From Thermoflexales bacterium (lineage in GTDB: Bacteria; Chloroflexota; Anaerolineae; S140-20), in assembly GCA_015484715.1 (NCBI GenBank), contig WFUY01000581.1, positions 1 through 14,995 on the forward strand: 14,995 nucleotides of DNA. Direction: 5' to 3'. The position numbers were made by a program, and so were the translations under genes. Below, piece after piece: positions 321 to 14,172 of this stretch. Within the stretch, counting starts at the first letter, position 1. Each line of letters starts with the position of its first letter. The notes under the pieces are model-generated. The model was not told the DNA's origin. It ran no database searches and saw only the letters and a list, made by a program, of their open reading frames with translations.

Positions 321-2069
321 ATGACGCCTGAACGCCGCATCCGCGATCACCTCGCCTTTCTCTACGGCAAGACCGAGGCGGAGGCGCTGTGGCCCCGGCT
401 GGAGGCCCGGCTGGAGGCCTTTCGCCGGCGCAACCCCCACCTGCGGGAGGAGGTCCCGCCGCCCGAAGAGCGGCTCACGGAGCGGGATGCCTTCCTCATC
501 ACCTATGGGGACCAGTTCCAGGAACCGGGCCGGCCCCTCCTGCAGACGCTGGCGGACTTTCTGGAGCACCACCTGGCCGAGGCGATCAGCGGCGTTCACC
601 TGCTTCCCTTCTACCCCTACTCCTCCGACGACGGCTTCTCGGTTATAGACTACCGCCAGGTGGACCCCCGGCTGGGAACCTGGGAGGACGTGGCCCGTCT
701 GGGCCGGCGCTTCCGGCTGATGTTCGACGCGGTGATCAACCACATCTCCCGCCGGAGCGCCTGGTTCCAAGCCTTCCTGCGAGGCGAGCCGCCCTACACC
801 GACTACTTCATCGTCGTGGACCCGGACACGGACCTCTCGATGGTGGTGCGTCCCCGGGCGCTGCCCCTCCTAACGCCCGTGGAGACGGTCCACGGCCGGC
901 GGTACGTCTGGACGACCTTCAGCGAGGACCAGATAGACCTCAACTACGGGAACCCCCAGGTCTTGCTGGAGATCGTGGACCTCCTGCTCTTCTACGTGGA
1001 GCGGGGGGCGGAGGTGATCCGGCTGGACGCCATCGCCTACCTGTGGAAAGAGATCGGCACCCCCTGCATCCACCTGCCCCAGACCCACCGGGTGGTGAAG
1101 CTCTTCCGCGCCGTCCTGGATGCGGTCGCCCCCGGCGTGCTGCTGATCACGGAGACCAACGTTCCCCACGAGGAGAACATCAGCTACTTCGGCGACGGGA
1201 CCGATGAAGCACAGTTGGTCTACCAGTTCCCCCTGGCCCCCCTGGTGGTGCACGCCTTTCACACAGGGGATGCCCGCCGGCTGAGCGCGTGGGCGGCGAC
1301 GCTCCACACCCCCTCGCCGACGACGACCTTCTTCAACTTCATCGCCTCCCACGACGGCATCGGGGTGATGCCGGCGCGGGGGTTGCTGAGCGAGGCGGAG
1401 ATCCAGGCGCTGGTGGACCGGACACTGGCCCACGGAGGGCAGGTCTCCTACAAGGCCAATGCCGATGGCTCCCGCAGCGTGTACGAGCTCAACATCACCC
1501 TCTTCGACATCCTCAACGACCCTCGGGACCCCCGGCCGGAGGTGGACGTGCGCCGCTTCCTGGCCTCGCAGGTGATCATGCTCTCCCTGGCGGGCGTGCC
1601 GGGCATCTACGTCCATAGCCTCTTCGGTTCCCGCAACTGCCACGAGTGCGTCGCCCGGACGGGGCGGGCCCGGTCCATCAACCGGGAGAAGTTCGACCGG
1701 GCGACGCTGGAAGCCCGTCTGGCCGATCCGGGCACGCTGAGCCATCAGGTCTTCCGGGGGTATCGCCACCTGCTGCGCCGGCGACGGGAGCATCCGGCCT
1801 TTCACCCCAACAGCGAGCAGCGGGTGCTCTCGCTGCATCCGGCGGTCTTCGCCCTGCTGCGCAGCGCCTCCGACGGAGAGGACGTGGTGCTCTGCCTGGT
1901 CAACGTCTCCGGGCGTTCCCAGACGGTCCGGGTAGAGCCGAGGCAGTGGAGGCTGCCGGGGACGCCGGCCTGGCGCGATCTCATCGGTGGAGGATGCTAC
2001 TCCGAAGAGGGCGGAGCCTTCGAGGTCGCGCTAGATGCGTATCAGGCCGTGTGGTTGGTGCCGGCGTAG
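321..2069 (+). CDS. GH13_18 glucoside phosphorylase (sucrose/glucosylglycerate phosphorylase type)
   Basis: This 582-residue retaining glycoside phosphorylase is a glycoside hydrolase family 13 (alpha-amylase fold), subfamily 18 member. Such enzymes reversibly phosphorolyse an alpha-glucoside to glucose-1-phosphate in the cytoplasm. Visible motifs are FDAVINH (135-141, region I), the nucleophile Asp236 in VIRLDAIAY, the acid/base Glu278 in LLITETN, and the transition-state Asp345 in FIASHDGIG. The HLLPFYPYSSDDGFSVIDY block (93-111) and the SINREKFDRATLEARL block (452-467) are typical of the subfamily. The C-terminal beta domain is complete. The length is nearer to glucosylglycerate phosphorylases (about 560 residues, E. 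coli YcjM type) than to classical sucrose phosphorylases (about 500), so glucosylglycerate is the favoured substrate, by inference only. No signal peptide is seen. The gene is convergent with the aldehyde dehydrogenase and has no obvious partner gene in the window. Confidence 0.88.
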   Translation: MTPERRIRDHLAFLYGKTEAEALWPRLEARLEAFRRRNPHLREEVPPPEERLTERDAFLITYGDQFQEPGRPLLQTLADFLEHHLAEAISGVHLLPFYPYSSDDGFSVIDYRQVDPRLGTWEDVARLGRRFRLMFDAVINHISRRSAWFQAFLRGEPPYTDYFIVVDPDTDLSMVVRPRALPLLTPVETVHGRRYVWTTFSEDQIDLNYGNPQVLLEIVDLLLFYVERGAEVIRLDAIAYLWKEIGTPCIHLPQTHRVVKLFRAVLDAVAPGVLLITETNVPHEENISYFGDGTDEAQLVYQFPLAPLVVHAFHTGDARRLSAWAATLHTPSPTTTFFNFIASHDGIGVMPARGLLSEAEIQALVDRTLAHGGQVSYKANADGSRSVYELNITLFDILNDPRDPRPEVDVRRFLASQVIMLSLAGVPGIYVHSLFGSRNCHECVARTGRARSINREKFDRATLEARLADPGTLSHQVFRGYRHLLRRRREHPAFHPNSEQRVLSLHPAVFALLRSASDGEDVVLCLVNVSGRSQTVRVEPRQWRLPGTPAWRDLIGGGCYSEEGGAFEVALDAYQAVWLVPA

Positions 2070-2123: not shown

Positions 2124-3569
2124 CTACACCCCGTATCCTACGTACACCGTCTTGATGCGCGTGTAGAACTCAATGGCGCTCTGCCCTTGTTCCTTAAAGG
2201 TGTTGGCGCTCGACTGCTTGAATCCACCGAAAGGTGCCTGTAGGGCCAGGCCCGTGGTGGGTTCATTGACCTTGACCACACCGACGTCTGCCTCCTCGGC
2301 GAAGGCAAATGCCCGCTGGAGGTTGCTGGTCACAATGCCTGCCACCAGCCCATAGGCGACGGTATTCGTCTTGGTGATGGCCTCGTCGAAGTCCTTGGCT
2401 CGGATCACCGCGATGACAGGCCCGAAGATCTCCTCCTGGGCCAGGCGCATCTGAGGGTCTACGAAGTCAAAGACCGTGGGTTCCACGAAGTACCCTCCCT
2501 TCTTCGCAATCCCACCTCCCACCAGGAGTTTGGCTCCTTCGGCCTTCCCTATCGCTACGTATTCCAGATCGGTCTCCATCTGCTCCTGGCTCACGGCGGG
2601 TCCCATCTGCGTTGCAGGATCAAGGCCATCGCCCACCACCAGGGACCGGGCCGCGTCGCAGAGGCCCTGGACAAAGGCGTCGGCGATCTTCTCGTCCACG
2701 ATCACGCGACTGGTCGCGGTACATGCCTGTCCCGTCAGTCCAAAGCCACCTCGCACCGCCAACTGCACGGCGAGGTCCAGATCGCCATCCTCCAGCACCA
2801 CCAGCGCATTCTTCCCCCCCATCTCCAACTGAACCCGCTTCATCGCAGGGGCTGCCCTCCGGTAGACCTGGACGCCTACTTCGTAGGAGCCGGTAAAGCT
2901 TACCCCCTTGACCTCTGGATGGATTACCATCGCATCCCCCACTTCTCTACCCGACCCTGTCACGTAATTGACCACTCCGGGGGGGAGCCCCGCCTCGACC
3001 AGGGCCTCCACCAACATAAGGCTGCACTGAGGGGCCAGACTTGCGGGTTTGAACACGACGGTGTTGCCGTACACGAGGGCCGGGGCGATCTTCCAGGCAG
3101 GGATGGCGACAGGGAAGTTCCACGGCGTGATGATGCTGATCACTCCCAAGGGTTCCCGACGGGTGTAGAGCATTTCGCCATGTACATTGCTGGGCAACAC
3201 GCTGCCGCCCATCCGCCAGCCCTCACCTGCGTAGTAGCGAAAGATGTCGCGCGCCCGGGCAACCTCGGCCCGCGCCTCGGCCAAGGTCTTCCCCTCCTCG
3301 CGAGTTAGGGTGACGGCGATCTCCTCCAGTCGTTCGTCAATGAGTTGGCTGGCTCTGTAGAGGATGGCTCCTCGCGTAGGTGGAGGGGTCTCTGCCCACG
3401 CGGGAAGTGCCTCCCTGGCGGATTCAACAGCGCGTCGGGTGTCTTCGCGGGTCATGCTGGGAAACAGCCCCAAGACCTCCTCGGGATTTGCCGGGTTGCG
3501 GTTCTCAAAGGTCGCACCGTTCGAGGAAGTGACCCATTCTCCCCCGATCAGATTACGAAACTTCTCCAT
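2124..3569 (-). CDS. Aldehyde dehydrogenase, probable alpha-ketoglutarate semialdehyde dehydrogenase
   Basis: This 481-residue NAD(P)-dependent aldehyde dehydrogenase is complete. The catalytic Cys283 sits in TGQACTATSR and the general base Glu249 in VQLEMGGK. Asn151 in TPWNFP and Lys174 in VFKPAS contribute to the oxyanion hole and cofactor binding. FTGSYEVG (225-232) is the dinucleotide segment and EEIFGPV (379-385) is conserved. The C-terminal FKEQGQSAIEFYTRIKTVYV resembles 2,5-dioxovalerate dehydrogenases. Within this operon the likely reaction is alpha-ketoglutarate semialdehyde to alpha-ketoglutarate, the last Weimberg step; the assignment depends on context. I chose the ATG at 3569 because GGAGG (3578-3582) lies 8 nt upstream and MEKFRNLIGGEWV is the usual family N terminus. 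A GTG at 3608, overlapping the dehydratase stop, would add 13 residues. It is the last gene of the operon. Confidence 0.87.
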   Translation of the reverse strand: MEKFRNLIGGEWVTSSNGATFENRNPANPEEVLGLFPSMTREDTRRAVESAREALPAWAETPPPTRGAILYRASQLIDERLEEIAVTLTREEGKTLAEARAEVARARDIFRYYAGEGWRMGGSVLPSNVHGEMLYTRREPLGVISIITPWNFPVAIPAWKIAPALVYGNTVVFKPASLAPQCSLMLVEALVEAGLPPGVVNYVTGSGREVGDAMVIHPEVKGVSFTGSYEVGVQVYRRAAPAMKRVQLEMGGKNALVVLEDGDLDLAVQLAVRGGFGLTGQACTATSRVIVDEKIADAFVQGLCDAARSLVVGDGLDPATQMGPAVSQEQMETDLEYVAIGKAEGAKLLVGGGIAKKGGYFVEPTVFDFVDPQMRLAQEEIFGPVIAVIRAKDFDEAITKTNTVAYGLVAGIVTSNLQRAFAFAEEADVGVVKVNEPTTGLALQAPFGGFKQSSANTFKEQGQSAIEFYTRIKTVYVGYGV

Positions 3570-3577
3570 TGCTCTTG

Positions 3578-3582
3578 CCTCC
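3578..3582 (-). promoter_or_regulatory. Ribosome binding site for the aldehyde dehydrogenase
   Basis: On the minus strand GGAGG precedes ATG 3569 by 8 nt. It lies between that ATG and the alternative upstream GTG at 3608, so it supports initiation at 3569. It sits just downstream of the dehydratase stop codon. Confidence 0.7.
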
Positions 3583-3604
3583 ATGTACGGGATGTATGTC
3601 GCGC

Positions 3605-5755
3605 TCACAGGTATGGCCGGGTTGCTTCTGCGAAGACCTCCAGGGGTACGACCCCCTGTGAGGCGTCGGTCACTCGCTGGAGCCGATTAGGGGCGGCGAT
3701 GGATGATCTCCGCTGGACCAGGGGGCGTCGTCGCTCGGCGATCAGGGCGTGGCGCGCCTGGGCAAGATTCACCTCCCAGGGTACCAGGCGACCGGCGGCC
3801 AACGCTTGGGGATCCAACAGGTCAATCCGGCGCTTGCGCAATTGGATGTGCAGGAGATCCCCCGTTTGGAGAAGCCCTATCCAGCCCCCTTGGATCGCCT
3901 CAGGCGTCACGTGGCCGATGGCCGGCCCGTAGGTCACCCCGGAAAAGCGACCGTCGGTCAGGAGCACGGTGACCCGTTGCAGTCTCCTGTTGGCGTTGAT
4001 GTACTGCATAGGCGTGAACATTTCGGGCATGCCGAAGGCTTCAGGCCCTTGCCCGCTGATGACCACGGCAACCTTCAGGATCCCTTCTCCCAACGTCCAG
4101 TCGAACAGGGTGTGGCGGTCCCATACCTCGACGGCAGGGGGCAGAGCGCCCCGTCTCCTGGCATTGTGGGTTGCTATGCTCCGCAGCGTCTCCCGGGTGA
4201 GAAAGGGGGTATCCCGCAGGCGGGACAACAGGTGGGGATCCAACAACTGCTCGTTGGCGTCCTCCTCGTTCTCGAAGAAGAGCACGACGGCCACTTGATC
4301 GTCAAACTGCTCGATCTGTTCATCGGTCATACCGCTGATCTTGACGACAGCCGAATCGAAGAAGTTGCTCTGCAGAACCTCGACGCCGCTGTAGGACCTC
4401 CGGGGAACGTGCAGGATGATGGGATTCTCCCTCACGCCGTCGGCCCTCAGGTGGTTGGGATCGGCCAAGCGTTCATCCCACGTCGTCCCGGTCACCGTAG
4501 GAGCGTCCAGGTCCATAGGAATGCCTTGGCGGAACAGCTCGTAAAACAGGGTCTCAACGCCACGAATGAGGCCGGCAGCCCGCTGTTGGGCCAGGGCGAA
4601 AATGTCTCGTCCTTCCGTGAGGCTGTAGTCAAAGATGTCCGGCACAGGCGGGTGACGCCGAATGTAGTCCACGGTGTGGATGTCCACCTTGTAGCCCGCG
4701 TAGAGCATAGCTGCGACCAGATGGAGCATCAGGTTGGTTGATCCACCCGTGGCACTGTACACGCGCACCGCGTTGGCGAAGTTGCTTGCCAGGATGCGTC
4801 CCACGCTGTAGGACGGGCGTTCGAGACAGGCGAACAGCCCTGCAACAGCCTCCCGGACCTGCTCCAGTTCGGGGGGGCTTGTGAGGAGTTCGACCGAGGG
4901 ATGCACCAGCCCCATAGCCGACAGGGCGATGCGGCTGGAATTGCCGGTCCCGTTGAAGGCACAGATGCCCCCCTTCGGATCACACGTGTGGACGGCCAGA
5001 CGCCGCTCGTAATCGGCGTGTGTTTCTGCGGTAATGAGCCCCGCGTCTCTGGCCCGGGTCAACACAGCCCTGAAGGCCGAGTTTGAAGTGCACTGGAGGA
5101 TGTACTTCATCGTCTCGCGCAGATCGGAGGCGATCTCCTGGTATCCCTCTTCCTCTGCTCGCCGGGCTACCTCCTCCAGTTCGGCGCGCAGGTCTGGTGG
5201 GATGGTGCCTCCGCGCAGGACGTGAGCCGGCTGGAACGTCGCGGTGAGGGGGAGATCGCCCCGTCTCCGGCGCAGCATATCCAGGTGGGCCAATCCGGCC
5301 AGGATGGCAAAAGGGGTCTTGTCGCATCCGGTGACGACGTAGGCGGCATGGTAGGTGTGTGCCTCCATCTGGTTGATCACCATAGCGGCCACAGCGTTGC
5401 GGCTCTGGAGGCTGTAGCTCATGCCCAGGGTGCTTTGGGCGATGGCGTCGCATACCACAGGGATGCTGAAGTAGAAAGGCACTCCGCCTTGCTCCCAGAT
5501 GGCTGCGGCCGCTTTTAGGACGGGTTCCCAATCCACAATGTGGGCCGGATGGTCGAGGGAGCCCCCAATGATGGCAACACGCGGGGCATTCTGGTCCAAT
5601 CTATCGTAGACCGTCTCCAGCCGACCGTCTAGCTCGGTCAGACCCAGCATGGTACGTGCCCTCTCCAGGAGAGCCACGACGGTGATGGGCGCATTGGCCT
5701 TGGCCTGGACGTTCTCTCGATAGGGGTTAGAGCCGGATAGCGTCCTGGGGCTCAT
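3605..5755 (-). CDS. Divergent IlvD/Edd-family sugar-acid dehydratase (probable pentonate dehydratase)
   Basis: This 716-residue protein is an iron-sulfur dehydratase of the IlvD/Edd superfamily, nearest by motif to Edd and YjhG/YagF. It should remove water from an aldonate to give the 2-keto-3-deoxy acid. Three candidate cluster cysteines are present: Cys102 in VVCDAIAQ, Cys144 in GCDKTP, and Cys265 in GGICAFNGTGN. ATGGSTNLMLHL (335-346), GQGPEAFGMPEM (568-579) and DGRFSGVTYGPAIGHV (601-616, with the proposed catalytic Ser605) are conserved. The PCN-type cysteine of the [2Fe-2S] class is missing near residue 71, as in Edd. It is longer than Edd/IlvD (about 600) and YjhG (about 655). About 120 residues separate the second and third cysteines, against roughly 75 in relatives. 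The start at 5755 gives an ATGA overlap with the upstream dehydratase, implying translational coupling. D-xylonate or L-arabinonate is the inferred substrate. Confidence 0.82.
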   Translation of the reverse strand: MSPRTLSGSNPYRENVQAKANAPITVVALLERARTMLGLTELDGRLETVYDRLDQNAPRVAIIGGSLDHPAHIVDWEPVLKAAAAIWEQGGVPFYFSIPVVCDAIAQSTLGMSYSLQSRNAVAAMVINQMEAHTYHAAYVVTGCDKTPFAILAGLAHLDMLRRRRGDLPLTATFQPAHVLRGGTIPPDLRAELEEVARRAEEEGYQEIASDLRETMKYILQCTSNSAFRAVLTRARDAGLITAETHADYERRLAVHTCDPKGGICAFNGTGNSSRIALSAMGLVHPSVELLTSPPELEQVREAVAGLFACLERPSYSVGRILASNFANAVRVYSATGGSTNLMLHLVAAMLYAGYKVDIHTVDYIRRHPPVPDIFDYSLTEGRDIFALAQQRAAGLIRGVETLFYELFRQGIPMDLDAPTVTGTTWDERLADPNHLRADGVRENPIILHVPRRSYSGVEVLQSNFFDSAVVKISGMTDEQIEQFDDQVAVVLFFENEEDANEQLLDPHLLSRLRDTPFLTRETLRSIATHNARRRGALPPAVEVWDRHTLFDWTLGEGILKVAVVISGQGPEAFGMPEMFTPMQYINANRRLQRVTVLLTDGRFSGVTYGPAIGHVTPEAIQGGWIGLLQTGDLLHIQLRKRRIDLLDPQALAAGRLVPWEVNLAQARHALIAERRRPLVQRRSSIAAPNRLQRVTDASQGVVPLEVFAEATRPYL

Positions 5756-6684
5756 TGTTCCATCCGCTTCACCCAATTCCGCAGGATGCCGATGCCTTCG
5801 ATCTCAATCTCCACCTGATCGCCCTCTTCTAGGGCAACGTCATCGTCGGGCACGATGCCCGTTCCGGTGAGCAGGATGACCCCGTGGGGGAAGTCATTGT
5901 ATCGGGCCAGATACCCCACGAGTTCCTCCAGGCTGCGGCGCATCTGACCCGTGCTGACTTCCCCACGAAAGCGCAGTCGGTTCCCCTTCCTGATGGTCAG
6001 ACGGATGGTTAGGTCGTGGGCGTTGATGCCGCTGTCGGCCAGCACAATGACCGGCCCGACAGCACAAGCGTGTCGGTAGATTTTCGCCTGGGGCAGGTAT
6101 AAGGGGTTCTCGCCCTCGATGTCCCGGCTGCTCACGTCGTTTCCAATGGTGTAGCCCACGATCTGCATCGTGGGGTTGACGGTCAGGGCCAGTTCCGGCT
6201 CGGGGACGCTCCAGTGGCTGTCCCCTCGGATGCCGATCCAGTCGTTGGGACCGACGACCTTCTCAGGAGTGGACTTGAAGAAGAGTTCTGGTCGCGCCGC
6301 TTCGTACACCTGGGAATAGACGCTCTGATTTCGTGCCTCCCGCATGCGCGCCTCTCGACTTTGGTGGTATGTCACGCCCGCTGCCCAGATCTCCTGACGA
6401 TCCACAGGGGGCAGCAGGTGGGGGGCTCGTCTGTCCGGCGTGCGGTCCAACTCGCTATACGGGTACACAGGTAGCTTCGTCTTGTCTACCTCCTGCAGCA
6501 GGGTAGCGATGGGCATCTCCGTTGAGGCCTGCAGCAGAGCGGCAAGGGATTGACAAGGGGCGAGGCCACTGGCGGTCAGGTCATAGACCTGCCCGGCAAC
6601 GACCTGACCCACCCGCACCCCTTGATGGGGGTGAAAGAAGCGGCAGAGTTTTACCGGGGCCTGAACCTGGTTGCTTCTCTCCAT
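5752..6684 (-). CDS. FAH-family 2-keto-3-deoxy-pentonate dehydratase
   Basis: This 310-residue protein belongs to the fumarylacetoacetate hydrolase superfamily. It resembles 2-dehydro-3-deoxy-D-arabinonate/xylonate dehydratases (archaeal KdaD, Caulobacter XylX), which convert the 2-keto-3-deoxypentonate to alpha-ketoglutarate semialdehyde. The divalent-metal triad is visible: Glu162 and Glu164 in VPEPELALTV, then Asp183 in GNDVSSRDIEGENPLYL. The IEGENPLYLPQAKIY segment (189-203) is typical of the KdaD-like group and not of catechol-pathway isomerases. ATG 6684 is preferred over an upstream ATG at 6723 because AGGGAG (6691-6696) lies 6 nt upstream and the longer form would overlap the permease gene. 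Its stop overlaps the next gene's start (ATGA). An acylpyruvate hydrolase role is an alternative but fits the neighbours less well. Confidence 0.86.
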   Translation of the reverse strand: MERSNQVQAPVKLCRFFHPHQGVRVGQVVAGQVYDLTASGLAPCQSLAALLQASTEMPIATLLQEVDKTKLPVYPYSELDRTPDRRAPHLLPPVDRQEIWAAGVTYHQSREARMREARNQSVYSQVYEAARPELFFKSTPEKVVGPNDWIGIRGDSHWSVPEPELALTVNPTMQIVGYTIGNDVSSRDIEGENPLYLPQAKIYRHACAVGPVIVLADSGINAHDLTIRLTIRKGNRLRFRGEVSTGQMRRSLEELVGYLARYNDFPHGVILLTGTGIVPDDDVALEEGDQVEIEIEGIGILRNWVKRMEQ

Positions 6685-6694
6685 GAGCGTCTCC

Positions 6695-7684
6695 CTATTC
6701 CCTGATTTGGCTCCCACGTCCATACAGGAATAACATGCCGAGGATCACGAGCCCGTAGATGATGTTGCGCCCTGCCTGCGAAATTTGCATGATGCTGAGG
6801 GTGCTCTCCAACAGGGTGATGATGATGGCGCCCGCTACAGTCCCCATGTAGAGCCCCGATCCTCCCAGGATATTTGTGCCCCCGATGACGACGGCAGCGA
6901 TGCTTGGGAGCAGGTACGGTTCCCCCATCCCGTTGAAACTACGGCCTGCATATCCCACGAGCAGGATGCCTGCGATGGCGTTCATCAGGCCGCTCAAGAC
7001 GAATGCGCTGATCAGCACCCGATGGGATTTCACTCCTGAGAGATAAGCGCAGATCTCGTTGTTCCCCACCGCGTATATCTTGCGGCCCAGCGCACTGCGA
7101 TGTAGCACGATGAAGCAGAAGAGCGAGATAGCGGTCCACACCAGGACCACCGAGGGAAGGCCCCCCCACACTTTGTGGTGCACAATCAGATTCAGCAGTT
7201 CGGGGGATTCACCCTTGGGCTGAGCACCCGTGTAGAGCACGGTTACCCCTTTGACCACAGCGTCCATGCCCAGGGTGAGGACCAGAGAGGGGATGCGCAG
7301 GTAAGCGACTCCCAGCCCGTTGAGGAGGCCCACAATGAGGCCAACGGCCAGCCCGGCCAGCACACCCAACCAGAGACGCTCGTTCTGTCCTTGGGCGATG
7401 GAGGTGACCATCACGGCTGCCAGGTTGAGCGTCCAGCTTACAGACAGGTCAATGTTGCCCGTCAGGATGACCATCATCTGTCCTGCTGCCACCGCGCCTA
7501 GGAAGGAAGCCTTCATAAGCTGGAGCAGCAGGTAGTTGGGGGATGCGAACTGGGGCATGATCAGGGATCCGAGGCCAACGATGGCGACGATCATCAGGTA
7601 AGCGATGACCACGCTTCGCTGTTCCTGATTCAGGCCCCGAAGCCAGCGGTGCAGAGAGAGCCAGGCACGAGAGGTTGTGACCAT
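6695..7684 (-). CDS. Sugar ABC transporter permease 1 (RbsC-type)
   Basis: This 329-residue hydrophobic protein is an inner-membrane permease of the branched-chain amino acid/ribose type (BPD_transp_2). It has about eight to ten membrane-spanning segments, the family motif GNIDLSVSWTLNLAAV near the first third, the cytoplasmic coupling segment HRSALGRKIYAVGNNEICAYLSG, and the GGTNILGGSGLYMGTVAGA signature towards the C terminus. It should form half of a heteromeric channel with the second permease. The start at 7684 has GAGG (7691-7694) 6 nt upstream. It follows permease 2 after 63 nt and precedes the dehydratase by 10 nt. The transported ligand cannot be read from the sequence; a pentose, aldonate or lactone is inferred from context. 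Confidence 0.9.
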   Translation of the reverse strand: MVTTSRAWLSLHRWLRGLNQEQRSVVIAYLMIVAIVGLGSLIMPQFASPNYLLLQLMKASFLGAVAAGQMMVILTGNIDLSVSWTLNLAAVMVTSIAQGQNERLWLGVLAGLAVGLIVGLLNGLGVAYLRIPSLVLTLGMDAVVKGVTVLYTGAQPKGESPELLNLIVHHKVWGGLPSVVLVWTAISLFCFIVLHRSALGRKIYAVGNNEICAYLSGVKSHRVLISAFVLSGLMNAIAGILLVGYAGRSFNGMGEPYLLPSIAAVVIGGTNILGGSGLYMGTVAGAIIITLLESTLSIMQISQAGRNIIYGLVILGMLFLYGRGSQIRE

Positions 7685-7747
7685 AGTTCGCCTCTGTGGG
7701 ATATAGCGTCTCCTGATGGACGCTGCTGCTACCAGCCGTTGTGGTGC

Positions 7748-8749
7748 TCAGCGCATCGTCTCCAGGCGATTGCGCAGGGTGAACGTTCGCGCTGCTCCCA
7801 GGGAAATGGCGATCAAGAGCACCAGCCCCTCGAAAAGGGGTTGGGAGAGAGGGTTGATTCCGGCGAAGAAGAGCACGCTGCTGATGATGCGGATCACGAA
7901 TGCGCCGGCGATCGTTCCCGCCACCCCTCCTGAGCCTCCAAACAGGGAGGTGCCGCCGAGGACCACGGCACCGATGGATTGCAGAGTGTAGACCGCTCCG
8001 ATGGTTGCATCTCCAGAGCTGGTTTGGGCGGTGAGGAAGAGCCCTGCCAGAGCGGCGAGGAAGCCGGCCATCACATATGCCGCCACCTTAGCCCGGTTCA
8101 CGTTCAGCCCGCTCATGTAAGCGGCACGCTCGTCGCTGCCTACAGCATACACGGCCAGGCCCAACCGCGAACGACGGAAGGGTGCCCATATGAAGATTAG
8201 GACGAACGCCAGGAGCACCAACGAGGTGGGGATCAGGTCGAACACCCGCCTGGTCAACAGGTCGCCGTACCATAGGGGCACGTAGCCCCCCGGGCGTGGG
8301 CGCAACATCAGGGCGAAGCCGCTGTAGATGGAGGCTGTGGCTAGGGTGACGATGATGGGCTGTAGACGACCGTACACCACAATCAGACCATTGATCAGGC
8401 CCGCCAGGGCTCCCACCAGGAGCACCAGCACCACCACACCGATGACGCCCGGCACGCTGTCGGGGAACAGGGTTGACGCCAGGGTGTTGGACAGGCTGAC
8501 GATGGGGCCGACGGAGAGATCAATGCCAGCGGTGAGCACCACGGCTGTTTGGCCCATGCTGGCGAGAACCAGGGCCATCCCCTGGTTGGCCGTTGCCGTG
8601 ATGACCGGCTTGGTGAACAGCCGTGGCTGCAGCCCAGCGTACACTCCCAACAGCGCCAGAAGGGCAACATAGGCGATACCTACCTTGAAATTGCGCCTGA
8701 AGAAACGCCTGAGCCATTGGGCACCGTCTGCTATGGACAGGGTCGTCAT
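7748..8749 (-). CDS. Sugar ABC transporter permease 2 (RbsC-type)
   Basis: This 333-residue permease is homologous to, but clearly different from, permease 1. It has many hydrophobic segments, the family motif TAGIDLSVGPIVSLSN, the coupling segment FRRSRLGLAVYAVGSDERAAYMSG, and the signature GGTSLFGGSGGVAGTIAGA. The start at 8749 is preceded by GGAGG with 5-nt spacing, and the ATG overlaps the ATPase stop (ATGA), so translation is probably coupled. Two unequal permeases with one double-domain ATPase resembles the YtfQRT-YjfF and LsrACDB importers and differs from RbsC, which acts as a homodimer. A much longer upstream-extended reading frame lies entirely within the ATPase gene and is not used. 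Confidence 0.9.
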   Translation of the reverse strand: MTTLSIADGAQWLRRFFRRNFKVGIAYVALLALLGVYAGLQPRLFTKPVITATANQGMALVLASMGQTAVVLTAGIDLSVGPIVSLSNTLASTLFPDSVPGVIGVVVLVLLVGALAGLINGLIVVYGRLQPIIVTLATASIYSGFALMLRPRPGGYVPLWYGDLLTRRVFDLIPTSLVLLAFVLIFIWAPFRRSRLGLAVYAVGSDERAAYMSGLNVNRAKVAAYVMAGFLAALAGLFLTAQTSSGDATIGAVYTLQSIGAVVLGGTSLFGGSGGVAGTIAGAFVIRIISSVLFFAGINPLSQPLFEGLVLLIAISLGAARTFTLRNRLETMR

Positions 8750-10287
8750 GCCATCCTCCGCACCGGGCTCTCTTCTCTCCCGTTCGCCTTCATACCCAAG
8801 GCGGTGGCCACCAGATTCTCCTCGCTGAGGGCCTCGCCGGAGAGCTCTGCGCTGATGCGACCTTCGTAAAGCACCAGCACCCGATCGCATAACCCCACCA
8901 GCTCGCTGAGGTCCGTGGAGAAGAACAGGATTCCCGCCCCTTCGTCGGCCAACGCCCGCATCAATTGGTAGATCTCGTGTTTTGTGCCTACGTCTATCCC
9001 TCGTGTCAGATCGTACAGCAGGTAAATCTGGGCCTGGGTGAGCAGCCATTTGGCGATGACCACCTTCTGCTGGTTGCCGCCGCTGAGGCTACGCACGGTG
9101 ACGCTTGGTGAGGGCACCTTGATCCGGAGTTGTTCGATAACGCGGTCCACGGCTGCTCGCTCCTGGTGGTGCATCATGAGGCCGAAGCGTGCGTATTGGT
9201 GCAGCGTGGCGAGGGTGATGTTGTCCTTCACCGGCATAGGCAGGATCAATCCCTCCGTCTTGCGGTCTTCCGGAATCAGGGCCAATCGAATGCCCGCGCT
9301 GGCGGCAGCAGCGGGGCTTGTGATCTGTTTCTCCTCTCCGTTTACGTAGATGCGACCTCGTACATTGCGCAGCACGCCAAAGAGGGCGAGGAGCAACTCT
9401 CGTTGACCCTGGCCTTCCAGTCCTCCGAGACCGAGGATCTCTCCCTCTCCCAGCCTGAAGCTGATGTTGCGAAGGGTATCTCCCCAACTCAGGTCTTCGA
9501 TCACCAGGAGCGGCACCTCGTGAGCGGGAAGGGCGCGTTTGGGGGGAAAGACCTGCTCCAGCTTGCGGCCAATCATCATCTGGACCATCTCTTCCCGGCC
9601 AACCGTGCCGGCCGGGAAGGATGCGACGTTGCGACCGTCGCGGAATATGGTGATGGTATCCGCGATCTCCTCGACTTCGTCCATGCGGTGGGAGATGAAG
9701 ATGACGGAGCGGTTCTGAGCTCGCAACCGTTCCATAATCTCGAAGACTGTGTGGACCTCCTGCATCGTCAGGGCGGAGGTGCCCTCATCCAGGATCAGGA
9801 CCTGAGGATCCCGCGACAGCGCTTTGGCGATCTCCACCAACTGTCGTTGGGCGAGGGGCAGCTCCCCAATGAGGGCATCGGGGTCCACATCCTGGAACCC
9901 CAGTTCCGCCAGGAATTGTTTTGCACGTCTGTACAGGGCCTTTCGGTCAACCAAGCCCAGGTGGGTGCGGGGCGGGTTCGTGATGAAAATGTTCTCTGCC
10001 ACCGTTAGGTCGGGCATCAGGGAGAGCTCCTGGAACACGGCCCCAATCCCCAGGCGTGTAGCCACGATGGGCGAATCAATGACCACGGGACGTCCCCGCA
10101 CGTTGATCGTGCCCGCGTCCGGGATCACTACCCCGCTTAAGATCTTGACCAATGTGCTTTTCCCTGCCCCGTTCTCACCGACGAGGGCGTGGATGCTGCC
10201 TGGTTGACATCGAAAGGAGGCCTGATCGAGGGCGACCACGCCATCGTAGCGCTTTGTTATATCTCGTGCCTCTACCAGCGGTTGCAT
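8746..10287 (-). CDS. Sugar ABC transporter ATPase with two nucleotide-binding domains (RbsA/MglA-type)
   Basis: This 513-residue cytoplasmic ATPase powers the importer. The N-terminal domain has Walker A GENGAGKST (37-45), a signature-like LPLAQRQ (143-149), Walker B VLILDE (163-168) followed by GTSALT, and the H-loop His200. The C-terminal domain has the degenerate P-loop usual for this family (GLGGLEGQGQREL, 286-298), signature LSGGNQQK (401-408) and a Walker B region reading IYLLYDLTRGID (421-432). There the usual Asp-Glu-Pro is replaced by Tyr-Asp-Leu. Only one of the two ATP sites is therefore expected to be fully catalytic. The start at 10287 has AGGAG 4 nt upstream and gives the normal family N terminus. 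An upstream ATG at 10353 would lie in the intergenic hairpin and is rejected. The gene is separated from the binding protein by 141 nt containing that hairpin. Confidence 0.93.
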   Translation of the reverse strand: MQPLVEARDITKRYDGVVALDQASFRCQPGSIHALVGENGAGKSTLVKILSGVVIPDAGTINVRGRPVVIDSPIVATRLGIGAVFQELSLMPDLTVAENIFITNPPRTHLGLVDRKALYRRAKQFLAELGFQDVDPDALIGELPLAQRQLVEIAKALSRDPQVLILDEGTSALTMQEVHTVFEIMERLRAQNRSVIFISHRMDEVEEIADTITIFRDGRNVASFPAGTVGREEMVQMMIGRKLEQVFPPKRALPAHEVPLLVIEDLSWGDTLRNISFRLGEGEILGLGGLEGQGQRELLLALFGVLRNVRGRIYVNGEEKQITSPAAAASAGIRLALIPEDRKTEGLILPMPVKDNITLATLHQYARFGLMMHHQERAAVDRVIEQLRIKVPSPSVTVRSLSGGNQQKVVIAKWLLTQAQIYLLYDLTRGIDVGTKHEIYQLMRALADEGAGILFFSTDLSELVGLCDRVLVLYEGRISAELSGEALSEENLVATALGMKANGREESPVRRMA

Positions 10288-10331
10288 GTTGCTCCTGGGA
10301 CAAGGGAAGTGGATGATGGGATCTGCCACGG

Positions 10332-10419
10332 GTGGGCAGGGATAAGGGTTCACTCCCTGTCCAACCTAACGCATAGGATTGGGGCTGTAGGGAGTGAACC
10401 CTGACTCACCCCTGCCCAC
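10332..10419 (-). promoter_or_regulatory. Long imperfect hairpin between binding-protein and ATPase genes
   Basis: Two nested perfect arms are present. GTGGGCAGGG (10332-10341) pairs with CCCTGCCCAC (10410-10419). AGGGTTCACTCCCT (10345-10358) pairs with AGGGAGTGAACCCT (10389-10402). The apical 30 nt can pair further (CCAACCTA with TAGGATTGG, one bulge). There is no U-tract after the hairpin in the direction of transcription, so it is not a classical intrinsic terminator. By analogy with sugar-transport operons, such a structure may protect the upstream binding-protein mRNA from 3' decay or cause partial attenuation. That role is inference. Confidence 0.85.
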
Positions 10420-10428
10420 GATCAGAGG

Positions 10429-11640
10429 CTACTTGGCCGATTCTGCCAGAATCTCCTCAGGTGTGAGGTCTACACCGCAGGACGGGAACTTGATCGGTGT
10501 GAAGAAGTCATCGGGCAGATCGGGGAAGTAGTTGACGCCGGGTTGCAGGTCTTCTGACCGGGCGACCGGCAGTGGGACGGAGATGATCCGAGGCAGCTCT
10601 TTGCCCTGGAGCAACTCCAGAGCCGCCTGGATGGAGACTGCCACGAGGGCGGGGCTCTGTCCTACCGAGATGCCCACCAGGCCCTCATCCTTATATTCGG
10701 CCATCAGCTTGCGGAAGCCGTTCTCTGCCTCGCCGGCAATGGGCACGAAGGGCCGGCCTGCATCCATAAAGGCCTTCACTGCGCCCACCGTCCCCGCCTG
10801 CACCCATACCCCGTCAATGTCATCGCGGGTGGCGAGGAGATCGGCCATCACCTTCTGGGTGACTCCATCATCCCACATACCGACCACTTCAGCGATGATG
10901 TTGATCCCCGGGTATTGGGAGAAGACCTCTTTGGCTCCCTTGTTGCGGTCCCGGTCCACGCTCGTGCCGGGCACGCCGTTCACCATCACGACGTTCCCCT
11001 TCTCGTTCAACCGCTCCACCAGATCGCGGGCCATAACACGGCCAAACTCGACCTGATCTTCGTTCACCAGGACGGCGTCGGGTGAGGTGACGATGTTATC
11101 GAAGGAGACGACGATGATGCCTGCCTCCTTTGCCCGACGGATGACCGCGTCAAAGCCCGTTGGGGTGGCCGCGTTCAGGATGATAGCGTCCACACCCGCA
11201 GCGATCATATTGTCCATCTGGGCGATCTGTGCCGCCACGTCCTGCCCAGAGCTGATCACCGTGAACTCTTCGATCAAGGGAGCCACGTGGGGCTGTTTCA
11301 CATAGGCCTTGGCGATCTGGATCATCTGGGTGCGCCAGGCATTGCCGATGTAGGAGTTGCTGACCGCGATCTTGTAGGGCGGCGGCTTGGGGGCGAATTT
11401 GACCGTTTGATCGTTGTTGACAGCAGGCTGGAAGCAGGCTGCCGGATCGTACTCAGGCGGATATTGGACCGTCGCGGAAGTGGGGGACGGTACCGGCGTT
11501 GGGGGCTCTGTGGACTTGGGCATTGGTGTGGGAGTGGGGGCAGCAGGTGAACAGGCTCCTATCACCAATGCCACCACAATGAGGGCTGCCAGGGATGTGC
11601 TGATGGATCGCCAGCCCCTTGGAGCGCTTCTGCGGTTCAT
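10429..11640 (-). CDS. Sugar ABC transporter substrate-binding lipoprotein
   Basis: This 403-residue extracytoplasmic solute-binding protein is of the periplasmic-binding-protein type used with RbsA/RbsC systems (Peripla_BP_4-like). A basic N terminus is followed by a hydrophobic segment and a lipobox ending at Cys30 (ALVIGAC), so it is probably a membrane-anchored lipoprotein. A Pro/Thr/Ser-rich linker spans about 31-60. The mature domain begins around PPPYKIAVSNSYIGNAWR. DNMIAAGVDAIILNAATPTGFDAVIRRAKEAGIIVVSFDN is the typical sugar-binding-protein core. The start is strongly supported by AGGAGGAGG upstream of ATG 11640. The ATG overlaps the stop of the transposase remnant. It is the first of the transport genes, consistent with needing the highest expression. 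The ligand is not identifiable from sequence. Confidence 0.92.
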   Translation of the reverse strand: MNRRSAPRGWRSISTSLAALIVVALVIGACSPAAPTPTPMPKSTEPPTPVPSPTSATVQYPPEYDPAACFQPAVNNDQTVKFAPKPPPYKIAVSNSYIGNAWRTQMIQIAKAYVKQPHVAPLIEEFTVISSGQDVAAQIAQMDNMIAAGVDAIILNAATPTGFDAVIRRAKEAGIIVVSFDNIVTSPDAVLVNEDQVEFGRVMARDLVERLNEKGNVVMVNGVPGTSVDRDRNKGAKEVFSQYPGINIIAEVVGMWDDGVTQKVMADLLATRDDIDGVWVQAGTVGAVKAFMDAGRPFVPIAGEAENGFRKLMAEYKDEGLVGISVGQSPALVAVSIQAALELLQGKELPRIISVPLPVARSEDLQPGVNYFPDLPDDFFTPIKFPSCGVDLTPEEILAESAK

Positions 11641-12317
11641 AGGTCACCTCCTCCTGGTAATGGTGCGCATATTGCAGACTTTACCCTTTGCTTAGGCCCG
11701 CGAATGGGCGAGCCTTCTCCTACCGTCCGGACTTGAGCCCCGACGATGGACGCCAGGGGCTCCACCCTCTGCCTGAGGGATTGCACCTCATCCGGTAACA
11801 GACCGCTGACTTCTACCGTCCAGCAGCGGGAACCGTGTATGTGTAGCCTCACGGACAGCCATCGTCCCCCATATTGCACCGCTGCCATACCACAACTAGG
11901 CCCCGACACCCGTGCCCTTTGGAAGAGGGATTCCCGGCGTACCCCCTGGGTGTGGGCCAGCGTGTTGTGGACGACCCCGTATACTTGGCTCTTGCACAGG
12001 TAGATCCCCAGCGCATCCAATACCCGGGCAACAGCACCGTAGCTCAGTCCCAGCAGGTACAACAAGAGGGCCACCTTTTGCACTCGCTGGGAGGTGTGGG
12101 CTCGTGACACGCCTGAGGGATAGACTCGGAAGGTGCGTCCACACACCAAGCATTGGTAGCGGTGAGCCCACACCTCTTCGCATACGGCATCCCGCACGAG
12201 CTTCTTGACCACTTGCCTCAGTCGGACCTGGGTGCTGTTGCAACCCGGGTAGGGACACCGCGTTGGGTGAGGGATGCCCTTGGGATCATCCCAGTGGAAG
12301 GTGAATACCAGGCGCAT
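11637..12317 (-). pseudogene. Truncated zinc-ribbon/HTH transposase fragment
   Basis: This 226-codon open frame matches the N-terminal half of an insertion-sequence transposase. It has a zinc ribbon (Cys21, Cys26 in CPYPGC; Cys56, Cys59 in CLVCG), a helix-turn-helix around 86-115 (LYLLGLSYGAVARVLDALGIYLCKSQV), and the beginning of a DDE catalytic domain (GGRWLSV onward). Recognisable similarity stops near residue 199 (about 11721), just where the second catalytic Asp would be expected. The first expected Asp also appears absent (GPSCGMAAV). The last 27 codons read through the binding protein's leader, including its ribosome binding site, and the TGA overlaps that gene's ATG. It cannot be an active transposase. 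It may be a decaying IS remnant or a retained DNA-binding protein. The IS family is not assigned and no terminal inverted repeats were recognised. Confidence 0.68.
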
Positions 12318-12397
12318 ACATCCTCGCCTTGCATCCTCGAGGGTCTTCCTATGGTCGTGGGGGACTGCACTTCATCGTGGGGCATCAAGAGCCCGAT

Positions 12398-13078
12398 CTA
12401 TCGAGGAAACTCGGCCACTACCGTGCACGGGCTCCCGTCAGAGCCCTCTATGAATAAGGGCCAGGCATAGATGCGCACAGCCTTGTCCAAGTCAGGGTCA
12501 ATCCGCAGGTCCTCCAAGATCAACAGGAACCGGCCATCCTCACGCCCCACCCCTGTCAGGACCTGATGGGTTTCGATCGCCTCTTCCTCATACTGGGGAG
12601 AACCGATGGAGACCGCGTCAATGGCGATAGCCTTCAAACGGGGGAACTGCTCTATCAGAAAGCGTGCAGCTTCTGGATGCAAGGCGGGTCCTTCCCATAC
12701 GTAGCGTCGGGGATCTTGAGGTCGCACAGCGCTCCAGCCGGTGTACAACAATGCCAGATCGGCAGCGGCAAGTTGATCGGCGAATGGTTCGAGTTCTGCC
12801 CTGTGGATCAATCCCCCTTCGGGTTTGGGCACCTCAATCACCACGGGGGCGAAGAAAACGTAAGCATCTACAGGCAGATCAACCGCTGCAGGACCACGCT
12901 CGTTGAAGTGCTTTGGAGCATCCAGGTGTGTCCCAGAGTGAGAGAACAGGTGCAGGATCGTGGTATTGACCACGTCCCCACGGGCGATTGCCTGAAACGG
13001 CTCTGAACGGACTGGCGGTGGATTTCCCGGCCAAACAGGGTCGGTTGACCGCAGGGGATACGAGAGCATCCGAAACAT
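12398..13078 (-). CDS. Cyclase/KynB-like metal-dependent hydrolase
   Basis: This 226-residue protein belongs to the cyclase family (PF04199; includes bacterial kynurenine formamidase KynB and isatin hydrolase). The defining motif SHSGTHLDAPKHF gives His47, His51, Asp53 and His57, with spacing as in KynB-type metal sites. His171 in ETHQVL and Glu189 in LILEDL are candidate additional metal or catalytic residues. It should hydrolyse an amide or ester-like bond, including lactones or lactams in some relatives. It lies 37 nt downstream of iclR on the same strand and upstream of the sugar-acid genes. No kyn gene is near, so tryptophan catabolism is not supported here. A role in lactone opening within the pentonate pathway is a hypothesis. 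ATG 13078 has a purine-rich GGAAGAG about 7 nt upstream. Confidence 0.8.
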   Translation of the reverse strand: MFRMLSYPLRSTDPVWPGNPPPVRSEPFQAIARGDVVNTTILHLFSHSGTHLDAPKHFNERGPAAVDLPVDAYVFFAPVVIEVPKPEGGLIHRAELEPFADQLAAADLALLYTGWSAVRPQDPRRYVWEGPALHPEAARFLIEQFPRLKAIAIDAVSIGSPQYEEEAIETHQVLTGVGREDGRFLLILEDLRIDPDLDKAVRIYAWPLFIEGSDGSPCTVVAEFPR

Positions 13079-13115
13079 GTCTGATCTCTTCCTTGGTGAC
13101 CAGCTTTGCCCGTGA

Positions 13116-13886
13116 TCAGGCCCGGTTGATGTACCCCAATCGGCGGGACAGTTCTTGGGCTAAGATGCAGACCCGCTGTGCCAGTTCCTTCTCGCGTTCG
13201 TCGTCCATACGGGTGATGGGTACCGAGATGCTGACCGCGGCGACGACGGTCCCATGGGCGTCACATACAGGGGCCCCCACGCAGCGGAGGTCCTCAAGGG
13301 TTTCCCCGCGATCCACAGCGTATCCCCGGACCCGGACCTCTGCTATCTCCCGTTTCAAGTCGGCCAGGTTGCCGATGGTCTGCGGAGTCCGTTTTTCCAG
13401 AGTGACGCCTTCGTAGAGCTCGTCAATGGCCGCGTCAGAGAGTCCCGCCAACAGGGATTTGCCCAACGCCGTGGTATGGGCTGGCAGCTCACTTCCCACC
13501 TCGCTGGCGAGCCGGACCGGCTGGGTCCCATCCTGCTTGCCGATGTACAGGACGTTCCGCCCGCGCAGAATGGCCAACTGTACGGTTTCTCCGCACTCCC
13601 GTGCCACCTCCGCCGCCAACACCTGGAACTCTTTCAGCAAGTTGATTCGTTGGACGTAAGCCAACCCTAGGACCAGCAACTGGGGGCCTAGGGAGTATCG
13701 CTTGGTCACCGGGTCCTTCACGATGAAGTCCCGTTGTTCCATAGTGGTGAGCACCACGTACAGGCTGCTCTTCGCCGCCTTCAGTGTGCGGGCCAGTTCG
13801 CTGACTCCCATCCCATCGGGATGGTCGGCGAGCAGGGTGAGTACGCTGAGAGCTCGGTCTACAGAGGGGGAGATGGGCTTGTTCAT
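13116..13886 (-). CDS. IclR-family transcriptional regulator
   Basis: This 256-residue regulator has an N-terminal winged helix-turn-helix (about 9-67; HTH around GVSELARTLKAAKSSLYVVLTTM) and a C-terminal IclR effector-binding domain (about 80-250). The latter shows the conserved PAHTTALGKSLLA (135-147) and GYAVDRGETLEDLRCVGAPV (188-207). Family members often respond to small organic or 2-keto-3-deoxy sugar acids (KdgR), and haloarchaeal XacR controls pentose oxidation genes, so control of the downstream operon is likely by analogy. The start is uncertain: ATGs at 13886, 13901 and 13916 are all in frame, and none has a strong ribosome binding site. 13886 gives the usual six residues before the SVDRALSVL helix. 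A GGTG upstream of 13901 makes that start possible too. The promoter and operator-like repeats lie directly upstream and overlap the alternative starts. Confidence 0.9.
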   Translation of the reverse strand: MNKPISPSVDRALSVLTLLADHPDGMGVSELARTLKAAKSSLYVVLTTMEQRDFIVKDPVTKRYSLGPQLLVLGLAYVQRINLLKEFQVLAAEVARECGETVQLAILRGRNVLYIGKQDGTQPVRLASEVGSELPAHTTALGKSLLAGLSDAAIDELYEGVTLEKRTPQTIGNLADLKREIAEVRVRGYAVDRGETLEDLRCVGAPVCDAHGTVVAAVSISVPITRMDDEREKELAQRVCILAQELSRRLGYINRA

Positions 13887-13894
13887 CGCTCTGT

Positions 13895-13931
13895 TGTTCA
13901 TAATACAGAACACCATTCGGTATTTGGAACA
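13895..13931 (-). promoter_or_regulatory. Candidate tandem operator at the iclR transcription start
   Basis: On the minus strand two 18-bp units, each TGTTC, eight bases, then GAA, start 19 bp apart (13931 and 13912). The second is a perfect five-base-arm palindrome (TGTTC-N8-GAACA, 13895-13912). The first has three matching arm bases (TTC-N8-GAA). They sit at about +1 to +37 relative to the predicted start, where repressor binding would block transcription. Autoregulation by the IclR protein is the natural guess but is unproven. Confidence 0.5.
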
Positions 13932-13937
13932 CTTTTC

Positions 13938-13965
13938 ATTATACCGTCCCTGGGGCCTGTGTCAA
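13938..13965 (-). promoter_or_regulatory. Consensus sigma-70 promoter for iclR and possibly the whole operon
   Basis: On the minus strand TTGACA (13960-13965) and TATAAT (13938-13943) are separated by 16 nt, both boxes being perfect consensus. Transcription would start near 13931, giving a leader of about 45 nt to ATG 13886. No comparable promoter is visible before the binding-protein gene, so this may drive all same-strand genes to 2124. Confidence 0.85.
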
Positions 13966-14004
13966 GCCTTCTCTCCCAAATTTGTCGTTCGAAATTTGGT
14001 ACTG

Positions 14005-14083
14005 TATTCGCGTATTCATGCCCCATTCGTGGACGGCTACTCTCCCTACCCCCCAGATATGGGTCATCCCCAGTGCGTGCGTG
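14005..14083 (+). repeat. Intergenic repeat copy A (direct)
   Basis: This copy is about 79 bp long and parallels copy B 169 bp downstream. The shared core includes CCCCATTCGTGGACGGCT (14021-14038 here, 18/18 identical), followed by TCTCCCTA and a later GTGCGTG. Divergence is concentrated in the middle of the unit. Confidence 0.85.
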
Positions 14084-14161: not shown

Positions 14162-14172
14162 GAGGCGGTCCT

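What the first reader, a model, noticed from the sequence alone, without database searches (positions are those of the whole stretch)
2124..13965. Compact lower-Weimberg pentonate operon with its own importer and IclR regulator, but no sugar-oxidising step
IclR, binding protein, ATPase, two permeases, KDX/KDA-type FAH dehydratase, IlvD/Edd dehydratase and KGSA-type aldehyde dehydrogenase all lie on one strand with short gaps or ATGA overlaps. Together the enzymes would take a pentonate to alpha-ketoglutarate. No pentose dehydrogenase or SMP-30 lactonase is present, so the importer may bring in an aldonate or lactone directly, an arrangement different from the Caulobacter xyl and Haloferax xac clusters.
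Basis: partly seen in the sequence, partly recalled or inferred. Interest (0 to 1): 0.7.

Follow-up and report, generated by a model that had tools for sequence, protein, structure and literature searches.

The report
Sugar-acid catabolic operon with dead transposase

Summary
The operon is real. It has ten genes, not eight: IclR, a PF04199 hydrolase, a transposase-derived ORF, CUT2 lipoprotein/ATPase/two permeases, FAH, IlvD/Edd, ALDH. It starts at a perfect sigma-70 promoter followed by two palindromes. The same ten genes, promoter and palindromes occur in one other Anaerolineae MAG, L004. [quoted passage not shown] ALDH scores best with 2,5-dioxovalerate dehydrogenase, below cut-off. The IlvD/Edd protein belongs to a separate ~720-aa clade; I found no characterised member. 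Of its 80 best loci 54 carry FAH and ALDH, 18 neither. A lower-Weimberg (Route II) module is well supported; the substrate is inferred. A cluster without the sugar-oxidising step is not new (Pseudomonas xylDXA), and a CUT2 importer fits a neutral sugar or lactone at least as well as an aldonate. The PF04199 gene is a candidate lactone opener. Most unusual is the ORF at 11637-12317: half of an IS66-like transposase, catalytic aspartates lost, in the same operon position in L004. Verdict: new variant of a known kind.

The parts
13938..13965 (-). sigma-70 promoter TTGACA-16-TATAAT of the operon
   Evidence: 12 of 12 consensus positions; conserved in L004 as TTGACA-17-TATAAT (my count) within a 112-column stretch at 76% identity. 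The scan as a whole found no more promoter-like sites than shuffles (3 against mean 3.0), so the evidence is the perfect match plus conservation.
13897..13929 (-). two palindromes TTCNNNATNNNGAA (13916-13929 and 13897-13910), 19 bases apart, just downstream of the -10 box: probable IclR operator
   Evidence: the only 2 matches in the 14995-base window; 0 of 200 shuffles had 2; the same pair at 1949-1962 and 1968-1981 of L004, which has 3 matches in all. The pattern was chosen after seeing the alignment. Binding by this IclR is inferred.
13116..13901 (-). IclR-family regulator (open frame runs to 13916; conserved ATG at 13901)
   Evidence: PF01614 and PF09339; best NCBIfam models BhcR 196.1 of 350 and KdgR 160.8 of 275 bits, both below cut-off
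12398..13078 (-).
   Evidence: PF04199 E 1e-22; HSGTHLDAPKH present (its role as metal motif is recalled); 78% identical in L004
10429..11640 (-). CUT2 sugar-binding lipoprotein
   Evidence: PF13407 E 8.5e-55; best solved relative 4pe6 E 1.4e-40; 90% identical in L004; lipobox LIGAC read by eye
8746..10353 (-). CUT2 two-domain ATPase (first codons uncertain)
   Evidence: PF00005 in 2 stretches; best NCBIfam models AraG, xylose, RbsA, all below cut-off
7748..8749 (-). CUT2 permease 1
   Evidence: PF02653 E 1.2e-32
6695..7684 (-). CUT2 permease 2
   Evidence: PF02653 E 7.2e-31
5752..6723 (-). FAH-family 2-keto-3-deoxy-D-pentonate dehydratase
   Evidence: [quoted passage not shown] E175, E177, D196 align with E143, E145, D164 of that chain (their role as Mg ligands is recalled); [quoted passage not shown]
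3605..5776 (-). IlvD/Edd-family dehydratase of a separate ~720-aa clade (likely start 5755)
   Evidence: PF00920 and PF24877; clade 100/100 apart from EcIlvD, EcEdd, EcYjhG and 11 homologues from same-class genomes; model pLDDT 84.0, all 25 PDB matches at E<=0.001 are IlvD/Edd-family entries
2124..3608 (-). alpha-ketoglutarate-semialdehyde-type aldehyde dehydrogenase (start uncertain)
   Evidence: best NCBIfam model 2,5-dioxovalerate dehydrogenase 625.8 bits (cut-off 750), second alpha-KGSA dehydrogenase 588.9 (cut-off 770)

Best explanation
An inducible operon for oxidative, non-phosphorylative (Route II, lower Weimberg) use of a D-configured pentose derivative. An IclR repressor binds two palindromes just downstream of a consensus promoter until a sugar-acid effector appears (inferred). 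The CUT2 ABC importer brings in a neutral pentose or pentonolactone (inferred). If a pentose enters, it is oxidised by a dehydrogenase encoded elsewhere; the lactone is opened spontaneously or by the PF04199 hydrolase (inferred). The IlvD/Edd-clade enzyme removes water from the D-pentonate to give 2-keto-3-deoxy-D-pentonate (inferred from partners), the FAH enzyme removes a second water to give alpha-ketoglutarate semialdehyde (strong homology), and the ALDH oxidises this to alpha-ketoglutarate (homology, below equivalog cut-off). One FAH enzyme suffices for every D-pentonate because all give the same 2-keto-3-deoxy compound (PMC9795676, passage seen).
For: [quoted passage not shown] ALDH best with 2,5-dioxovalerate and alpha-KGSA dehydrogenase models. 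FAH (>=40% identity) in 59, ALDH (>=40%) in 57, both in 54 of the 80 loci kept. Nine contig lengths are shared between the 120 listed IlvD hits and 119 of the 120 listed FAH hits; chance mean 0.65, maximum 4 in 2000 trials. The same 80 loci carry other sugar-acid genes: GD_AH C-terminal 41, DHDPS family 37, LarA-like 46, TRAP DctP 53. The protein is not the valine/isoleucine enzyme: the four relatives found with it (G437, G443, G467, G489) each also have a strong PF00920 gene of canonical type. No xylose isomerase model match in the window's genome or in G437.
Against: No assay. The IlvD clade also occurs without FAH and ALDH: 18 of 80 loci have neither at my thresholds, among them L005 and L006 from Chloroflexota; some of the 18 are cut by contig ends. 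In G443 and G489 only a different FAH (25-28% identity) is near. NCBIfam models for L-arabinonate and D-xylonate dehydratase score far below cut-off (87.8 of 882 and 131.1 of 808 bits), lower than generic ilvD (205.2 of 644). The ALDH is below both equivalog cut-offs. The IclR and CUT2 ligands are unknown. The window's genome shows no canonical ilvD, but it is 70.55% complete.
Confidence: 0.68

Rival explanations
1. One reading: the importer carries the aldonate itself, so no oxidation or ring opening is needed in the cell.
For: No dehydrogenase or SMP-30 lactonase in the operon. SMP-30 (PF08450) hits elsewhere are marginal: one in the genome (25.5 bits, 37.4 with neighbours, cut-off 26.3, in a 1226-aa frame) and three in G437 (28.1, 28, 22.4 bits). 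TRAP genes in 52-53 of 80 loci suggest the acid is the imported form there.
Against: The importer is CUT2; the best models for its binding protein are YtfQ, RbsB, XylF and RhaS. The operon has an unexplained hydrolase (PF04199). The genome is 70.55% complete, so absences are weak; five MDR dehydrogenase-like hits exist in it, 2 over the cut-off.
Confidence: 0.2
2. The IlvD-clade enzyme has a different substrate (a hexonate, tetronate or other 2,3-dihydroxy acid) and FAH plus ALDH serve another branch that merges at alpha-ketoglutarate semialdehyde.
For: 18 of 80 loci have the clade without FAH and ALDH; Bacilli loci also carry GD_AH and DHDPS-family genes that could reach the same semialdehyde by another route.
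Against: In the window operon no other gene looks able to make the FAH substrate, and IlvD and FAH are adjacent and overlap; FAH is near the clade in 59 of 80 loci.
Confidence: 0.2
3. The ORF at 11637-12317 is only an old insertion-sequence remnant with no function.
For: It is homologous to the N-terminal half of IS66-like transposases, and truncated transposases are common debris (recalled). In L004 its first 60 residues are no closer to the window copy (39%) than those of four true transposases are (42-51%), and in L004 it does not overlap the binding-protein gene (coordinates).
Against: Four related copies (217-226 aa) share the truncation and the loss of both catalytic aspartates and form one clade (100/100); open frame kept with pN 0.352 against pS 0.790 versus L004; same operon position in L004; no other copy found in the genome. 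The genomic places of P0122 and P0123 are not known.
Confidence: 0.35

Closest known systems
Route II (Weimberg) clusters of bacteria, e.g. Pseudomonas xylDXA/araDXA
   Same: aldonate dehydratase, second dehydratase (FAH for xylose), semialdehyde dehydrogenase and, for xylose, a transporter; no evident pentose dehydrogenase (PMC10107873, passages seen)
   Different: Xylose clusters there use MFS-type transporters; here the IlvD/Edd protein is of another clade, the FAH is of the Sulfolobus type and the importer is a CUT2 ABC system
[quoted passage not shown]
   Same: FAH dehydratase with aligned metal-site residues; Route II end product
   Different: Archaeal D-arabinonate dehydratase is of the enolase superfamily (PMC6336799, section read); here it is IlvD/Edd
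IlvD/Edd sugar-acid dehydratases (RlArDHT, CcXylDHT; PMC9314677, two sections read) and E. coli YjhG/Edd
   Same: Fold; CDK, GxC and DGRxSG motifs. Cysteine pattern CD/CDK/GxC as in E. coli Edd and YjhG
   Different: Separate clade of about 716-740 aa with GGSxDHPAH and CAFNGTGNS signatures; lacks the PCN cysteine of the [2Fe-2S] type (motif recalled; seen in L099)
Bacilli TRAP loci with the same IlvD clade (e.g. L008, L042)
   Same: IlvD clade (about 55%), FAH (about 48%), ALDH (about 48%), IclR (about 30%) in one locus
   Different: TRAP importer, LarA-like, GD_AH, enolase-superfamily and DHDPS-family genes instead of CUT2 and, as a rule, PF04199
IS66-like transposases (PF03050)
   Same: Zinc-ribbon-like cysteines, helix-turn-helix-like helices and first strands of the catalytic part (my reading)
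   Different: 226 instead of about 388 aa; both catalytic aspartates replaced

Membership tests
Route II / lower Weimberg module | aldonate dehydratase + 2-keto-3-deoxy-pentonate dehydratase + alpha-KGSA dehydrogenase in one unit | tested here: inconclusive
   three genes adjacent; FAH type clear, ALDH type best-scoring but below cut-off; aldonate specificity of the first enzyme not shown
Route II / lower Weimberg module | conversion of a pentonate to alpha-ketoglutarate | not testable with these tools
   needs enzyme assay
FAH-type 2-keto-3-deoxy-D-pentonate dehydratase | sequence similarity to 2q18 and its metal-site residues | tested here: met
   E 1.7e-62; E175/E177/D196 aligned with E143/E145/D164
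alpha-KGSA / 2,5-dioxovalerate dehydrogenase | score above equivalog cut-off | tested here: not met
   best-scoring models of 45, but 625.8 of 750 and 588.9 of 770 bits; so 'works like', not filed as a member
IlvD/Edd superfamily | PF00920 and PF24877 domains, fold | tested here: met
[2Fe-2S] sugar-acid dehydratase branch | PCN first-cysteine motif (recalled) | tested here: not met
   GGSxDHPAH instead; H72 in 119 of 120
known pentonate dehydratase subfamilies (L-arabinonate PRK13016, YjhG/YagF) | NCBIfam cut-off | tested here: not met
   87.8 of 882 and 131.1 of 808.15 bits
CUT2 sugar ABC importer | PF13407 binding protein, double-domain ATPase, two PF02653 permeases | tested here: met
PF04199 lactonase (hypothetical) | lactone hydrolysis | not testable with these tools
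   one paper search (3 of 4 terms needed) gave 0 papers
IS66-like transposase | catalytic aspartates (role inferred from conservation and recalled) | tested here: not met
   first Asp in 115 of 117 relatives, H/H/C/H in the 4 copies; second in 114 of 117, G/E/G/G in the 4

The most novel reading that the evidence does not exclude
A catalytically dead IS66-like transposase half has been domesticated as a second DNA-binding regulator (or translational coupling partner) of a sugar-acid operon, sitting between the hydrolase and the importer genes, while a PF04199 hydrolase serves as a new kind of pentonolactonase for a lactone taken up by the CUT2 system.
Probability: 0.2. Interest if true: 0.6.

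Novelty: new variant of a known kind. Interest (0 to 1): 0.4.

Why it matters
It ties an IlvD/Edd clade in which I found no characterised member to an identifiable pathway, making its substrate directly testable. The clade is large: the 120 listed proteins are all at least 56% identical (1178 hits in all, not all necessarily of the clade) and 236 genome stretches were confirmed (80 seen, all at least 53%). It adds a version that pairs a bacterial-type first dehydratase with an archaeal-type second one. If the transposase-derived gene is functional it would be an example of a domesticated transposase inside a bacterial metabolic operon.

Tried and rejected
Altered Fe-S ligation: at first the loss of the PCN cysteine in the homologues looked like a new cluster site. 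E. coli Edd and YjhG show the same pattern of cysteines, so I rejected novelty.

DHAD misannotation: rejected because the four relatives found with this protein also have a canonical PF00920 gene. The window's own genome shows only this one PF00920 gene, but it is 70.55% complete.

Hydroxyproline cluster in Bacilli: considered from gene lengths, rejected after Pfam.

PF04199 near IlvD elsewhere: 3 of 80 loci including L004; L017 (33% identity) and L070 are too few to show linkage.

Structural search with the transposase-derived model (pLDDT 87.4, residues 213-225 below 50) gave no match at E<=0.001, so the fold gives no independent support. A check of a C-terminal ERA motif was uninformative: 37 of 85 full-length relatives have it as I wrote it, and none of the 4 copies.

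The IlvD model has low-confidence stretches at 104-112, 222-224, 264-270 and 379-382, which include motif regions, so I drew nothing on active-site geometry from it.

Distribution: 1 of 400 phylum genomes at E<=1e-60, that one being the window's own genome, and 5 of 150 relatives at E<=1e-20, own genome included; so 0 of 399 and 4 of 149 others. The complete operon was seen in two genomes only: the window and L004. G437 is very probably the L004 assembly (contig of 52527 bases, same position of the match), so it is not an independent case.

Papers: the listings (0 papers; 0 papers) showed nothing on this clade in Chloroflexota or on PF04199 lactonases; several listings were cut (8 of 24, 13, 271, 877 and 212 papers shown; 20 of 23), and papers outside the held library were not searched.
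Full report
What is there. The window is the whole of contig C581 (14995 bases) of a genome of 2.99 Mb in 588 contigs, 70.55% complete. On the minus strand, from 13965 to 2124, lie a promoter and ten genes: IclR, PF04199 hydrolase, a transposase-derived ORF, CUT2 binding protein, ATPase, two permeases, FAH, IlvD/Edd and ALDH. Gaps are short and several junctions overlap by 4 bases.

Conservation. A scan of genome contigs with an alignment of 23 IlvD-clade proteins gave 236 confirmed stretches, of which the best 80 were kept. One of them, L004 (MAG Anaerolineae bacterium S141_23), has all ten genes in the same order: IclR 82%, PF04199 78%, ORFx 53%, binding protein 90%, ATPase 66%, permeases 83 and 80%, FAH 74%, IlvD 73%, ALDH 82% BLAST identity. 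pN is 0.079-0.352 and pS 0.653-0.847 for the ten genes, which indicates purifying selection on the proteins. The binding protein is the most conserved, which suggests one fixed ligand.

Control region. A 12-of-12 sigma-70 match (TTGACA, 16, TATAAT) lies at 13965-13938. It is followed by two palindromes TTCNNNATNNNGAA at 13929-13916 and 13910-13897. These are the only two in the window, and none of 200 shuffles had two. L004 has the same pair with the same 19-base step and the same promoter. I wrote the pattern after seeing this alignment, so the shuffle count flatters it; the conservation between the two genomes is the stronger point. The pattern, with 8 fixed bases, also occurs scattered in many Bacilli loci (58 of 128 loci have at least one match). 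The likely reading is autoregulation by the IclR. The second palindrome covers the conserved IclR start at 13901.

Enzymes. [quoted passage not shown] E175, E177 and D196 align with E143, E145 and D164 of that enzyme; that these bind Mg is recalled. [quoted passage not shown] The ALDH scores best with 2,5-dioxovalerate dehydrogenase and next with alpha-KGSA dehydrogenase, below both cut-offs.

The IlvD/Edd protein is the interesting one. It is a clear superfamily member by domain and fold (model pLDDT 84.0 with some low-confidence stretches; the 25 PDB matches at E<=0.001 are all IlvD/Edd-family entries). In a tree with E. coli IlvD, Edd and YjhG and 11 homologues from same-class genomes, the 11 clade members stand apart with 100/100 support on a long branch (the tool warns that long branches such as Edd and YjhG may be misplaced). 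Signatures are GGSxDHPAH (H72 in 119 of 120), CD (C102, 120 of 120), GCDK (C144, 120 of 120) and CAFNGTGNS (C265, 120 of 120). I first took the missing PCN cysteine for something new; E. coli Edd and YjhG have the same three-cysteine arrangement, so it is ordinary for part of the superfamily. The four relatives carrying this protein (G437, G443, G467, G489) each also have a canonical PF00920 gene at 467-476 bits.

Partners. In the 80 loci FAH (at least 40% identity) occurs in 59, ALDH in 57, both in 54, IclR in 58; 18 have neither FAH nor ALDH. CUT2 genes like those of the window occur only in L004 (binding protein and permeases 1 of 80; an ATPase also in L013). Other neighbours are TRAP genes (DctP 53, DctM 52, DctQ 40 of 80), a LarA-like protein (46), GD_AH dehydratase (41), DHDPS family (37), enolase superfamily (31), 2-hydroxyacid dehydrogenase (47), nearly all in Bacilli. 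These fit sugar-acid metabolism that converges on alpha-ketoglutarate semialdehyde; PMC6336799 (introduction read) states that this semialdehyde is shared by pentose, galacturonate and hexarate routes. LarA-family members include gluconate 2-epimerases (PMC11770544, passages seen), so a C2 epimerase next to this dehydratase would make sense. As a second sign of linkage, nine contig lengths are shared between the listed IlvD and FAH protein hits (chance mean 0.65), six of them above 15000 bases (chance mean 0.03). Results against: Chloroflexota loci L005 and L006 lack FAH and ALDH, and in G443 and G489 only a distant FAH is near, so the clade is not always tied to this pathway.

Missing oxidation step. 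No xylose isomerase match in the window's genome or in G437, listed as 99% complete. SMP-30 hits are marginal in both, though some pass the family cut-off. Glucose-dehydrogenase-like MDR hits exist in both (5 and 3) and a PF07995 dehydrogenase-type gene in G437 but not G000. A GMC oxidoreductase lies about 27 kb from the operon in G437. None is linked to the operon. Such a gap is not unusual: Pseudomonas putida group isolates lack an evident pentose dehydrogenase and depend on Gcd (PMC10107873, passages), and Sulfolobus solfataricus lacks a lactonase gene in its cluster (PMC9795676, passage). Because the importer is CUT2, I favour uptake of a neutral pentose or lactone over the aldonate; this rests on family habit (recalled) and on the best NCBIfam models, not on a test.

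The transposase-derived gene. ORF 11637-12317 has no Pfam or NCBIfam match at E<=0.001, but most of its listed relatives are transposase-like proteins of about 388 aa, several with PF03050. Against four of them it shares 42-51% over residues 1-60 and 55-66% over 61-125, but only 21-29% over 126-200. Of 117 other relatives 115 keep the first and 114 the second catalytic aspartate; the window copy, P0122, P0123 and the L004 copy have lost both and form one clade at 100/100 in a tree of 29 rows (the tool flags L004 as a long branch). No other copy was found in the genome. A model folds well except for the last residues (pLDDT 87.4), but no PDB structure matches at E<=0.001. So it is either a domesticated DNA-binding protein of the operon or a slowly decaying remnant. 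Shared catalytic loss with a kept frame and the same operon position favour the former; the L004 copy's weak N-terminal similarity (39% over 1-60) and its lack of overlap with the binding-protein gene speak against tight constraint. The places of P0122 and P0123 are unknown.

Verdict. Observation right but incomplete; interpretation partly supported; new variant of a known kind. Substrate, importer ligand, lactonase role and the role of the transposase-derived protein are all inferred and testable.

Noticed in passing
window 264-2069 (+): GH13 sucrose-phosphorylase/amylosucrase-like protein (best PDB chain 7qqj, E 1.6e-55; Pfam Alpha-amylase), convergent with the operon.
   Followed up: partly
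window 156-296: Tandem array of a 24-base unit GACCACGTGACCAAGCGACCAGAT, 5.9 copies, before the GH13 gene and inside its upstream open frame.
   Followed up: no
window 13998-14053, 14167-14222, 14130-14161: A 56-base direct repeat (84%) with an inverted third partial copy between the IclR promoter and the divergent gene.
   Followed up: no
window 14256-14995 (+): Divergent promoter-like site (11 of 12) and the start of a BTAD-type regulator that runs off the contig.
   Followed up: partly
L042, L023 and other loci: A U32-peptidase-like protein of about 315 aa in 63 of 80 loci of the IlvD clade; role unknown. A 447-aa protein without Pfam match (L023) with relatives in 10 of 80.
   Followed up: partly
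L071, L059, L061, L073: The IlvD clade in Poribacteria and Acidobacteria MAGs without FAH or ALDH at my thresholds; in L071 beside peptidase genes.
   Followed up: no
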